Part shown: positions 8,676 through 51,918 of the stretch, piece by piece
Numbering within the stretch: position 1 is the stretch's first letter
How the letters are laid out: every line of letters starts with the position of its first letter
From: Drechmeria coniospora
Lineage: Eukaryota; Ascomycota; Sordariomycetes; Hypocreales; Ophiocordycipitaceae
NCBI RefSeq assembly: GCF_001625195.1
Contig: NC_054390.1
Span: forward strand, 2,876,027-2,940,026
Direction: 5' to 3'
DNA length: 64,000 nucleotides
Translations under genes and position numbers: made by a program
The notes under the pieces: model-generated
Told to the model about the DNA's origin: nothing
The model's database searches: none
The model's input: the letters and a program-made list of their open reading frames with translations, nothing else

Positions 8676-8938
8676 TGTAAACACGCACAATAGTTGCTTA
8701 TGGGGTTGAATATTGGATTTTGCTGCTGAGGCTACATCATTCTATGGAGGTCTATTTGCTACTATATTCTTGTGCTGGGTTGAGCCCTGTCGAAACGGAC
8801 AAGCAGCCTATCCGGTCGGATATCCCTTGTCTATTCCCAATGTCAAATGCAATCAAACTTTTGGTTCTGTCCTGTCCCATGTCTATAAGTCTCGTCTGTG
8901 TCCGAGCTGTGGTTTATCTTGTTTCTGTCGCTGGTTTT

Positions 8939-10234
8939 TTACTGCGTAGGCTGGGGTGCCCAAGCAGTCATGACGCCATCGTTGGTTTGATAGGCGGTCA
9001 TGACGGGGTCCTCTTCCTGCTGCTTGTAGGCGGTCATGATGGGGTCTTCGTCCTGCTGCTTGTAGGCGGTCATGATGGGGTCCTCCTCCCTCTTGTTGTA
9101 AGCGGTCATCAGGGGGTCCTCTTCCTGCTGCTTGTAGGCGGTCATGATGGGGTCTTCGTCCTGCTGCTTGTAGGCGGTCATGATGGGGTCCTCATCCTGC
9201 TGCTTGTAGGCGGTCATGATGGGGTCCTCTTCTCTCTTGTTGTAGGCGGTCATCAGGGGGTCCTCCTCCTGCTGCGTGTAGGCGGTCATGATGGGGTCCT
9301 CCTCCCTCTTGTTGTAGATGGTCATGAGAGGATCCTCCTCCTGCTGCGTGTAGGCGGTCATGATGGGGTCCTCCTCCCTCTTGTTGTAGATGGTCATGAG
9401 AGGATCCTCGACTTTCCATGCGGTCATCTTGTCGTCGTCCCGCTTCCAAGCAGTCATGAAGCCATCTTCACCCTTGTAAGCGGTCATGATGCCATCCTCA
9501 ACCGAACCAGCAACCGCGGTGGCAGCCACCTTCTCCCAACCAGTCGCGTGGCCGCTATCGGACTTGTAGGCAGTCATGATGCCTTCTTCGTCCTCCTTCC
9601 AAGCAGTCATGTAGCCGTCTTCCTCTCTCCAGGCGGTCATGATGCCATCATCACCCTTCCAAGCCGACATGTAGCTGTCATCGGAATGGTAGGCTGTCAT
9701 CTTGGCATCCTCTTCCCGCTTCCAAGCAGTCATAAAATCAACCGCAGCGGGAGGGGTCGTGGGGGCCGGGCAGGGAGGTGTCTTGAGGTTGTAAGGCTTG
9801 CAGTCGGGGATGCACCTACTCCATTGTGTCAGCTCAAATCCGATAACACCACGCCCTCTCATCCGGTTCGGCACTTACCCTCCATATCGAATACCGCACG
9901 AGTTGATGGCATCGATGCAGATTGTGCGTGTACGACAATCATCCTTGGGCTTTGGCGTGCGCGTCGGCTTCGGAGGCGGCGTCGTTGTGCAAGGGGGTGG
10001 TACTGGTGCCTTCTGAGAGCACGGGTTATAGCATCTGCATCGTCCGAATCAGCTTGTCGGATCTACTTTGAACGGAACTCGGTAATATGAAACATACCCT
10101 CCAAAACGCTGGCCGCACTCGTTGATTCCATCAAAGCAGAGTGTCTTGTCCACACAGGCGGTAGGGGTAGCTCGAGGGGGGGCGGCACTGGCGAGGCCGG
10201 CAACTGTGATGAGGAGACCAGTAGTAGCCCGCAT
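8939..10234 (-). CDS. Secreted protein: two six-Cys modules plus MTAW/MTAY acidic repeats
   Basis: Unknown function. Exons 10234-10098, 10034-9879 and 9815-8939 give 389 residues. Residues 1 to about 19 form a signal peptide (MRATTGLLITVAGLASA). Two cysteine modules follow with identical spacing, C-x5-C-x6-C-x6-C-x3-C-x9-C. They are separated by a Pro/Thr-rich linker, and each is interrupted by a phase-2 intron exactly at GG|C. The remaining ~290 residues hold 22 clear repeats of M-[TS]-[AI]-[WY] in an acidic context, plus one decayed copy (HATGW). Early units are about 10 residues and mostly end in Trp; later ones are 12 residues, end in Tyr and read DPIMTAYKQQDE. Lys-Arg pairs occur six times (WKREED, WKRDDD, NKREED x4), as in kexin-processed precursors. 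No membrane anchor or GPI signal is seen at the C-terminus. It could be a processed peptide precursor, a wall or matrix protein, or an effector. Confidence 0.85.
8990..9415 (-). repeat. 36-bp coding tandem repeat array
   Basis: About twelve head-to-tail 36-bp units encode the 12-residue DP[IL]MT[AI]Y repeats of the secreted protein. Copies differ at few bases, and KREE- and QQDE/QQEE-type units alternate in places, giving a 72-bp higher-order period. The near identity at synonymous sites suggests recent expansion or homogenisation. Confidence 0.88.
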
Positions 10235-22059: not shown

Positions 22060-22285
22060 TACTGTAAGTACTGCACTGTAAGCACTGCACTGTAAGTACG
22101 GCACTGTAAGCACTACACTGCAAGTACGGCACTGTAAGCACTGCACTGTAAGTACGGCACTGTAAGCACTGCACTGTAAGTACTGCACTGTTAGCACTGT
22201 ACTGTAAGCACTGCACTGTAAGCACTGCACTGTAAGCACTGCACGGTAAGCACTGTACTGCAAGTACTGTACTGCACTGCAAGTA
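22060..22285. repeat. 14-bp tandem repeat array upstream of SAH hydrolase
   Basis: About 15 imperfect copies of a 14-bp unit, CTGTAAGCACTGCA or its variant CTGTAAGTACGGCA, ending about 245 bases before the ATG at 22532. Both variants embed the TGTA/GTAC words seen in the GTAC islands. Frames translated through it are repetitive artefacts. Confidence 0.88.
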
Positions 22286-48769: not shown

Positions 48770-49100
48770 CCTAGGAATTAATTGTCAGTTCCTACTTACA
48801 GTACTAGTAGCACCTACAGTACCTAGTACTTACTTACAGTACAAGTAGTACCTACAGTACTTACTTACAGTACAAGTGGTACTTACAGTAGGAGGTATTA
48901 CAGGTAGAGTCAAACGGCACAACACCTACTGTATGAACAAGCACAGTACTTGACACATACAAACTAATACTGTGCTTGTGCCATCCACAAGTACCTAGTA
49001 CACACGCGCCCGCACACCGTAAGTACGTACAACACTGGCAACGTATTTCTCGTAAAAGTAAGTACATACGCAGTACGACATTCGGATTCATGGAATTCGA
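48770..49100. repeat. GTAC-word island 4
   Basis: About 330 bases in which a unit close to CTTACTTACAGTACAAGTAGTACCTACAGTA recurs three times (48800-48890), followed by looser GTAC words. This island has the clearest local tandem order of the set. Confidence 0.75.
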
Positions 49101-50527: not shown

Positions 50528-51918
50528 GCAGATGGAGTGGGGCCGAGATTGTTACGATATCGCCGTCAGCATGTTGACCGAGAAGGCGGCGTGGGAGGAG
50601 TTCAAGGTATGACAATGGACGCACAACAGTGGTACTGCCGTCGAGGAGACTGGTGGCAACTTCATCGACCTCGCTTGCACTTGGGGGGTGAATGACCCCT
50701 TTCGACGACCTAGGAATGGAACACGGGCTGAAAAGGAACGCCAAAGGATTATGGAGATTCGCGGGAGAGTAAACATTGTCTCCGAGGATAGCCGAGTCGA
50801 GATCAGTGCGAATGACTTGTCTGTAAACTCGAATGAAAAAAAATAGCCTGTTTTGAACGATTGTCCAACGTTATAGTTGGTCGCAGAATGATTTTGCTGA
50901 GAGGCCATGTCATGGATGAAAGCGGTTTGATGGCAATCAAGATTGCTAAATGGGATGAGGAGCCACACATTTGACATTCATCACCGCCAGAGAAGGCAAT
51001 GCATATTGTGACATGACGGACGGACATGCTGCATATCCAATTTCACGATTCCTGTCAGCATTCCTTGACATGCCTGAATTGCGAGCCCGTGAAACTCACG
51101 CGTAACCATACCGACATGCATAAATGCTGTGCCTAAATGCTGTGCCTAAATGCTGTGCCTAAATGCTGTGCCTATGGCTCCCTTTCCAAGGCATTGCTGG
51201 AATAGCCGACTGGACCGGAAACGGACCGGAGAGCTTTGGAGACTTGGCATATGAATGCTTCCTCGGACGGAACTGAACTGGAAGAATCGTATCATTGTGT
51301 CCTACGTCTGATGTTGAGCCCCCTTTCTTGCCTTTTTTTAACATCTCGGATTTGACCACCGGAAGAATCGCCAACCCAAGGCACGACATCTCTCACCCGT
51401 TCTCTTAGCCATGTTCCACGCTTGTCGTAGGTGTAACGAGACTGTTGCTGTGGCACGGCTTGTCGGCAAAATTTGTTCATGCCTTGAGCATACGCTGGAC
51501 TGGCCAATGTTCACTAGTTACACCCAGATGGAACATAAGTCATGATACTCCCCGTCCTGTTCGTCGCTAGGACAAGACGCCCATCATGCTCACATGGACT
51601 ACGCGCATCGAAACGGCACGCCCTTGCACATCAACTTTTGCTGCTTCAGACGAGGAAGAGTCGCCAAAGCGAAACATTGCGGCGACGATTCGATCCAACC
51701 AGTTGGGTATAAAGGGCCGAATTCGAAAAACGAGCAGTCATCATTTTCATGATCAAAAGTCTATGCCGCTAGCTGGAATATCCGCCAGGAAACCGACCCC
51801 TGTGCAGCCAATCCAGCGATGCCGGAGCAAGGCAAGAATCGCCGCACAGCCTGCGTATAGCGTTTCCGAAAATTTTGGTTGAGCATCGTAGCCTCGCGAG
51901 TTTCCCGAGAGAAATCGC
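50528..51918. other. Convergent intergenic region ISU1 / P2
   Basis: 1.4 kb without a gene between the stop codons of ISU1 and ribosomal P2. Contains a 13-bp tandem repeat at about 51120-51172. Short frames on either strand do not resemble proteins. Confidence 0.6.
51120..51172. repeat. 13-bp tandem repeat, four copies
   Basis: Four exact copies of TAAATGCTGTGCC in a row. Perfect identity between copies indicates a young or actively slipping array. Confidence 0.9.

What the first reader, a model, noticed from the sequence alone, without database searches (positions are those of the whole stretch)
8939..9815. Secreted acidic repeat protein built on an M-T-A-W/Y motif
The exon encodes 22 clear copies of M-[TS]-[AI]-[WY] in an Asp/Glu-rich setting plus one decayed copy. 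Units change from about 10 residues (mostly Trp) to 12 residues (Tyr) along the chain. The core four residues are strictly kept while the rest drifts, so selection seems to act on the core. I know of no named domain with this repeat. This is the strongest candidate for an undescribed system in the window.
Basis: partly seen in the sequence, partly recalled or inferred. Interest (0 to 1): 0.85.

Follow-up and report, generated by a model that had tools for sequence, protein, structure and literature searches.

The report
Fungal secreted protein with MTAW/MTAY repeats
A fungus carries a single gene for an apparently secreted protein made of two small cysteine-rich modules followed by a tail of 22 short similar repeats; the front part has relatives in many fungi, the repeat tail was found in only three other proteins, and its function is untested.

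Summary
Exon 3 of a minus-strand gene (9815..8939) encodes 22 copies of M-[TS]-[AI]-[WY] plus one decayed ATGW copy; shuffling the same residues gives 0.03 on average. The gene model has three exons and 389 residues: signal-like N-terminus, two six-cysteine modules, Pro/Thr linker, repeat tail ending MTAWAPQPTQ. It is not an orphan: searches returned 41 relatives, most sharing the cysteine modules. Three of the 41 share the tail: Purpureocillium lavendulum, Ophiocordyceps sinensis and an unnamed contig. Among the older units, codon comparison shows more constraint on the core than on its flanks; the 12-residue Tyr block looks recently duplicated and adds little. Acidity is not conserved: one relative's tail is basic. 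Best reading: a secreted, probably surface-associated protein whose folded front anchors a multivalent tail, laid out like Ustilago maydis Rsp3. The rival is a Kex2-processed repeat precursor; the window protein appears to meet published sequence criteria for that, but its sites are irregular. No UstYa match lies within 2 Mb, which disfavours a clustered dikaritin. New variant of a known kind; moderate interest.

The parts
10098..10234 (-). exon 1: start codon, signal-like N-terminus, first part of cysteine module 1
   Evidence: sequence, splice model (GT-AG); relatives align with it
10035..10097 (-). intron 1 (GT...AG), after G-G and before the fourth Cys of module 1
   Evidence: apparent intron read-through (GGYV or GAYV) at the same place at 4 sites in 3 of 41 relatives, P0031, P0036, P0037; inferred from protein, no DNA seen
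9879..10034 (-). exon 2: end of module 1, Pro/Thr linker, first part of module 2
9816..9878 (-). intron 2 (GT...AG), same place in module 2
8939..9815 (-). exon 3: end of module 2, linker, repeat tail, stop codon
10181..10234 (-). signal-peptide-like N-terminus (hydrophobic stretch then A-x-A; about residues 1-18)
   Evidence: inspection, alignments of N-termini; SignalP not available
9989..10156 (-). six-cysteine module 1 (C27-C61), interrupted by intron 1
   Evidence: relatives; the same module of P0001 is predicted with block-mean pLDDT 77-95
9770..9937 (-). six-cysteine module 2 (C79-C113), interrupted by intron 2
   Evidence: tree groups it with last modules of Hypocreales; in P0001 block-mean pLDDT 89-92
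9398..9733 (-). older repeat block, units of 10-11 residues, W or Y
9536..9547 (-). decayed core ATGW, followed by a 20-residue gap
9002..9397 (-). 12-residue Tyr units (11 copies), 36/72-bp period
8942..8971 (-). C-terminus MTAWAPQPTQ, also the last ten residues of P0001, P0006 and P0007
9716..9721 (-). Lys-Arg after the first core, a possible Kex2 site; P0001 and P0006 also have KR after their first core, P0007 has KK
9089..9445 (-). stretch holding the other five Lys-Arg sites (starting at 9445, 9382, 9310, 9238, 9094)
   Evidence: residue numbers turned into coordinates

Best explanation
It is a secreted, non-enzymatic protein of a Sordariomycete set of six-cysteine-module proteins. The folded modules most likely hold the protein at the fungal wall or another extracellular surface, and the C-terminal tail displays many copies of a short aromatic motif, [DE]-D-[GP]-x-M-T-A-[WY]-K, as a multivalent binding or coating arm, the layout described for the smut effector Rsp3. 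Copy number changes by tandem duplication, while selection keeps the core. Shown: gene structure in sequence, relatives, single copy as far as searched, the repeat, lower non-synonymous change in the core. Inferred: secretion, surface attachment, binding by the tail, any partner. Some trimming by Kex2 at Lys-Arg sites is compatible with this.
For: Signal-like N-terminus and shared cysteine modules; modules of the relative P0001 predicted as small two-strand units with block-mean pLDDT mostly near 90; no Pfam family over cut-off in the window protein; Thr/Ser/Pro-rich linkers in many relatives (inspection); tail with the same last ten residues but different copy number in the 4 tail-bearing proteins (window 22, P0001 15, P0006 8, P0007 1 strict copies); lower pN in the core; no hydrophobic GPI-type C-terminus by inspection. 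Passages of PMC5923269: Rsp3 has a signal peptide, cysteine-rich region, long variable C-terminal repeats, no predicted GPI anchor, pI 3.8, hyphal attachment ascribed to its N-terminal part and host-protein binding largely to its repeats. The window protein's mature pI is 4.44.
Against: No expression, localisation or binding data. The tail's predicted structure is of low confidence (P0001 tail blocks 43-61; window exon 3 mean 38.2). Tail charge differs among relatives, one being basic, so a purely electrostatic trap is unlikely for all of them. Lys-Arg pairs are more frequent than in shuffles, which an intact tail does not need. O. sinensis keeps only one strict core. Rsp3 is only an analogue, and its own cysteine-rich region was not needed for hyphal attachment in that paper.
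Confidence: 0.45

Rival explanations
1. Kex2-processed repeat protein: the tail is cut after Lys-Arg in the secretory pathway and releases peptides of about 20-24 residues with two MTA[WY] cores, acting as signals, toxins or, like U. maydis Rep1 peptides, as a surface coat.
For: Six KR in the window tail; cutting the mature protein gives 113, 92, 21, 24, 24, 48 and 49 residues; against the 21-mer the 24, 24 and 48 score 71, 67 and 71% identity. By my approximation this meets the sequence criteria of two published surveys (methods sections; their programs were not run). KR after the first core in 3 of 4 tail-bearing proteins (KK in the fourth); P0001 and P0006 both have dibasic pairs after core 1, core 3 and the next core. 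Arg lies in a dibasic pair for 6 of 7, 3 of 5 and 4 of 5 Arg in the three KR-bearing tails.
Against: KR follows 6 of 23 units in the window; fragments are irregular, and the 92, 49 and 113 match the 21-mer at 43, 52 and 29% only; P0007 has no KR or RR. The KR excess over shuffles in the window is inflated by duplication. A folded conserved front is, from my own knowledge, unusual for such precursors.
Confidence: 0.3
2. The tail has no specific function beyond length or stickiness: a slippage-prone low-complexity appendage tolerated at the end of a functional cysteine-module protein.
For: 38 of 41 relatives have no core at all, though at least 6 of those 38 models stop or go out of frame in or near a module and could not show a tail; the O. 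sinensis copy has one strict core; the 12-residue block looks recent.
Against: Core pN below flank pN at similar pS in the older block; identical last ten residues in the four tail-bearing proteins.
Confidence: 0.15
3. Ustiloxin-type (dikaritin) peptide precursor with UstYa-cyclised Tyr/Trp cores.
For: Repeated aromatic core, Lys-Arg sites; UstYa matches exist in the genome.
Against: 17 UstYa matches among 20 scored candidates, the nearest about 2.05 Mb from the gene; a cited survey puts such genes on average 3.09 genes from the precursor, although only 22% of its precursors had one (abstract). The neighbours identified are of housekeeping type.
Confidence: 0.04

Closest known systems
Uncurated Sordariomycete proteins with six-cysteine modules (Trichoderma, Cladobotryum, Sordariales, Gaeumannomyces, Plectosphaerella and others; P0002-P0005, P0008-P0041)
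   Same: Modules C-x(3-6)-C-x6-C-x6-C-x3-C-x(9-12)-C (67 of 68 found fit this), signal-like start in many, P/T-rich linkers, apparent intron at the same place in some
   Different: No MTAW/MTAY core in any of these 38 models, of which several are truncated; 5 of 7 Trichoderma models have a Pro-rich tail with PW within the last 12 residues or so; two-module Sordariales models have short ends
Purpureocillium lavendulum protein P0001 (source name 'PQ loop repeat family protein')
   Same: Same two modules, 15 MTAW cores, same last ten residues
   Different: All cores Trp, mostly 10-residue units plus an irregular ISPAYKSGF stretch; no 12-residue Tyr block
Ustilago maydis Rsp3 (passages)
   Same: Signal peptide, cysteine-rich region, acidic protein with long variable C-terminal repeats, no GPI anchor
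   Different: A smut (basidiomycete) protein with other repeats; homology not shown; analogue only
Kex2-processed repeat proteins (KEPs), e.g. U. maydis Rep1, Hum3, Rsp1 (passages)
   Same: Repeats, Lys-Arg between some repeats, signal-like start
   Different: Sites irregular and after a minority of units; conserved cysteine-module front

Membership tests
Six-cysteine-module set | Module with the six-Cys spacing | tested here: met
   2 modules in the window protein; 68 modules in 38 of 42 proteins scanned, window included; none matched in P0006, P0007, P0036, P0037. Two or more modules by this regex in 22 of 41 relatives, one in 15, none in 4
Six-cysteine-module set | Intron between G-G and the fourth Cys | tested here: met
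   Both window modules; apparent read-through at 4 sites in 3 of 41 relatives; for the other relatives no DNA was available
KEP | Signal peptide | tested here: inconclusive
   Hydrophobic start and A-x-A by inspection; SignalP not available
KEP | At least 3 similar repeats between Kex2-type sites, repeat at least 15% of the protein | tested here: met
   4 internal similar fragments (21, 24, 24, 48 residues); 4 x 21 / 389 = 22% (criteria; approximated, original programs not run). Relatives: P0001 two internal fragments (20, 79), P0006 two (20, 19), P0007 none
KEP | Cleavage in the secretory pathway | not testable with these tools
   needs peptidomics
Dikaritin / ustiloxin-type RiPP | UstYa gene clustered with the precursor | tested here: not met
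   17 matches among 20 scored candidates in the genome, nearest about 2.05 Mb away
Rsp3-like | Sequence homology to Rsp3 | tested here: inconclusive
   No smut protein among the named hits, but Rsp3's length (at least 869 aa) lies outside the candidate limits and its sequence was not compared
Rsp3-like | Attachment to hyphal surface | not testable with these tools
   needs localisation
CBM1 (label given to P0022 and P0027 in UniRef) | Pfam CBM1 match | tested here: not met
   No CBM1 match in the window protein (E up to 1) nor in P0022, P0027, P0008, P0002 (E up to 10)

The most novel reading that the evidence does not exclude
A new extracellular repeat-peptide system of nematode- and insect-associated fungi: the MTA[WY] units, intact or released by Kex2 as two-core peptides, recognise a specific partner (host defence protein, cuticle or wall component) or assemble into a fibrous coat, with unit number and the Trp-to-Tyr switch tuning the interaction.
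Probability: 0.25. Interest if true: 0.65.

Novelty: new variant of a known kind. Interest (0 to 1): 0.4.

Why it matters
It points to a secreted-type cysteine-module family that no Pfam model described in my scans, and to a repeat tail, so far seen in few fungi, added to it. If the tail binds a host or wall partner it would be an ascomycete parallel to Rsp3 in fungi that live on nematodes and insects, where repeat number could be compared between strains.

Tried and rejected

A genome hit for my composite MTAW query at C1:240546 (E 0.001) lies in a 277-codon frame with TTAWTRSEGR repeats among several overlapping open frames: judged chance. Three weak hits at C1:7573 kb (E 0.002-0.30, 18-22% identity) were not followed.

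Viral contigs and prokaryote genomes: 7 and 58 pattern matches, none confirmed as a relative.

Literature: 'MTAW'/'MTAY' as strings gave 1,529 papers, 20 listed, none of the 20 relevant; MTAWK, MTAWKR, NECGMMYGG, MMYGGC and DAINACG gave 2 unrelated papers. By these two searches neither motif is in print in this library; supplements were not searchable.

A long open frame on the plus strand (8681..10090, 469 codons) is antisense to the gene; repeat units of 30 and 36 bases keep it open. Rejected as the gene because relatives, introns and synonymous changes support the minus strand. Mimicry of invertebrate W-x6-W peptides (recalled) was considered and dropped: the spacing here is larger and no Gly for amidation precedes the Lys-Arg sites.

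Full report
What is there. The finding's interval is exon 3 of a three-exon minus-strand gene model: exons 10234..10098, 10034..9879 and 9815..8939, introns 10097..10035 and 9878..9816, both GT-AG (one search printed this before a script error). The 389-residue product begins with a hydrophobic signal-like stretch, has two six-cysteine modules (C27-C61, C79-C113), a Pro/Thr linker, and a 264-residue tail with 22 M[TS][AI][WY] cores plus one decayed ATGW. 2000 shuffles of the exon's residues give 0.03 cores on average and 2 at most. The gene looks single copy: whole-protein, module and repeat queries of its genome return this locus, three weak hits at C1:7573 kb (E 0.002 to 0.30) and one hit judged chance; these searches score only the best candidates.

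Where it comes from. The window lies in an unnamed 32.83-Mb assembly of 28 contigs; contigs C1 and C2 are 12.5 and 10.2 Mb, and the window is 57% GC. The closest full-length relative is from Purpureocillium lavendulum. Drechmeria coniospora has a 32.5-Mb genome in three chromosomes, 55.0% GC (passages of PMC4792172; also PMC7500977), so that species or a near relative is my guess; it was not tested. No public copy of the window protein was returned.

The front half belongs to an unnamed but widely found set. Searches returned 41 relatives in all (in 7 and 27 only the about 8,000 candidates sharing most words were scored, and length limits apply, so this is a lower bound). A six-cysteine regex found 68 modules in 38 of 42 proteins, window included, and none in P0006, P0007, P0036 and P0037; 67 of the 68 fit C-x(3-6)-C-x6-C-x6-C-x3-C-x(9-12)-C. 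Among the 41 relatives 22 have two or more, 15 one and 4 none. Named sources are Hypocreales, Sordariales and other Sordariomycetes (orders recalled). I gave a tree the modules of 23 proteins of which 20 had two by the regex, 40 rows; first modules of Hypocreales (9 rows, support 90/70) and last modules of Hypocreales (9 rows, 94/92) fall apart, with the window's two among them. Only 36 columns exist and 2 of 37 inner branches are strongly supported; in Plectosphaerella and Cercophora first and last module group together instead. I infer an old two-module protein in Hypocreales. Apparent intron read-through in P0031, P0036 and P0037 (4 sites) puts an intron at the same G-G place. No Pfam family reaches its cut-off in the window protein. 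For the 38 rows of the wider alignment, the families listed point to no common function (25 of 26 families shown, NCBIfam); one row, P0002, has a Toxin_30/Ptu match of 25.3 bits against a cut-off of 24.5. AlphaFold gives the modules of the P. lavendulum relative block-mean pLDDT of 77-95 and 89-92, each with two strands.

The tail is rare. Of the 41 relatives, P0001 (15 strict cores, all Trp), P0006 (8; 7 Trp, 1 Tyr; unnamed short contig) and P0007 (Ophiocordyceps sinensis, 125 residues; 1 strict core, others degenerate) have it; the other 38 have none, though at least P0031, P0032, P0036, P0037, P0040 and P0041 stop or go out of frame in or near a module. The four tail-bearing proteins, window included, end in MTAWAPQPTQ. 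Of the four, the window alone has the 12-residue Tyr block. Five of 7 Trichoderma models have a different Pro-rich tail with PW close to the end.

Selection on the core. Among the first nine clear copies, pS is 0.66 and pN 0.12 in the core against 0.62 and 0.38 in six flanking positions; in the 11 copies of the 12-residue block pS is 0.08 and pN 0.07 in the core, 0.38 and 0.13 in the flanks. So the 12-residue block gives no clear sign of core-specific constraint. Copies are related by descent, and these are descriptive ratios, not a formal test. Asp at -3 (20 of 22) and Gly or Pro at -2 (18 of 22) are kept nearly as well as the core.

How it may work. Two readings lead. (a) Display: the front holds the protein outside the cell and the tail is a multivalent arm. 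Rsp3 of Ustilago maydis has that layout: signal peptide, cysteine-rich region, long variable repeats, no predicted GPI anchor, pI 3.8; its N-terminal part is held to attach it to hyphae, though its cysteines were not needed for that, and its repeats bind host antifungal proteins (passages of PMC5923269). (b) Kex2 processing: six Lys-Arg sites, fragments of 113, 92, 21, 24, 24, 48 and 49 residues; published criteria met by my approximation (methods sections of PMC6339444 and PMC7329392); Rep1, Hum3 and Rsp1 are precedents (passages of PMC4617103). Sites follow only 6 of 23 units, and O. sinensis has no KR or RR. KR/RR counts exceed shuffles (window 6 against 0.66, 0 of 5000 as high; P0001 3 against 0.73, p 0.02; P0006 3 against 0.81, p 0.02), but duplication inflates the first figure. 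I weigh (a) 0.45 and (b) 0.30. A clustered dikaritin is unlikely: the nearest of 17 UstYa matches is about 2.05 Mb away.

Neighbours. Of 36 stop-to-stop frames of 250 or more codons I scanned 20, and 10 matched Pfam at E 0.001: near the gene an ALG6/ALG8 glycosyltransferase, a BRO1-like protein (under its cut-off) and a 2Fe-2S protein of succinate-dehydrogenase type (my reading); further off eIF3h, S-adenosylhomocysteine hydrolase, clathrin heavy chain, a dipeptidyl peptidase IV, SPT2 and MMS19-type proteins and a weak PP2C match under its cut-off. Smaller genes were not looked for.

Charge. The window tail is about -33 at pH 7, P0001 -10.5, P0006 +2.5 and P0007 -1.5: a polyanion model fits this copy, not all relatives.

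Verdict. A real repeat tail with constraint on the core of its older copies, on a secreted-type cysteine-module protein with relatives in many fungi; ordinary in class, new in detail, function untested.

Noticed in passing
8681..10090 (+): 469-codon open frame antisense to the gene, repetitive; a by-product of repeat units that are multiples of three.
   Followed up: partly
22061..22274: Tandem array of 14-bp units, about 15 copies, ACTGTAAGCACTGC.
   Followed up: no
48793..48890 and 51117..51174: Short tandem arrays (18/31-bp and 13-bp units).
   Followed up: no
P0001 (Purpureocillium lavendulum): Source name 'PQ loop repeat family protein' and an N-terminal extension not aligned in relatives suggest a misnamed and possibly mis-started gene model.
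   Followed up: no
P0031, P0032, P0036, P0037, P0040, P0041: Gene models that seem to read through an intron or stop at or soon after the G-G before it; P0041 (Ophiocordyceps polyrhachis-furcata) also has unrelated sequence before its first module. The gene may be hard for annotation pipelines.
   Followed up: partly
P0003, P0019, P0021, P0026, P0030 (Trichoderma): Two modules followed by a different Pro-rich tail with PW close to the C-terminus, so tails on this family seem to change quickly.
   Followed up: no
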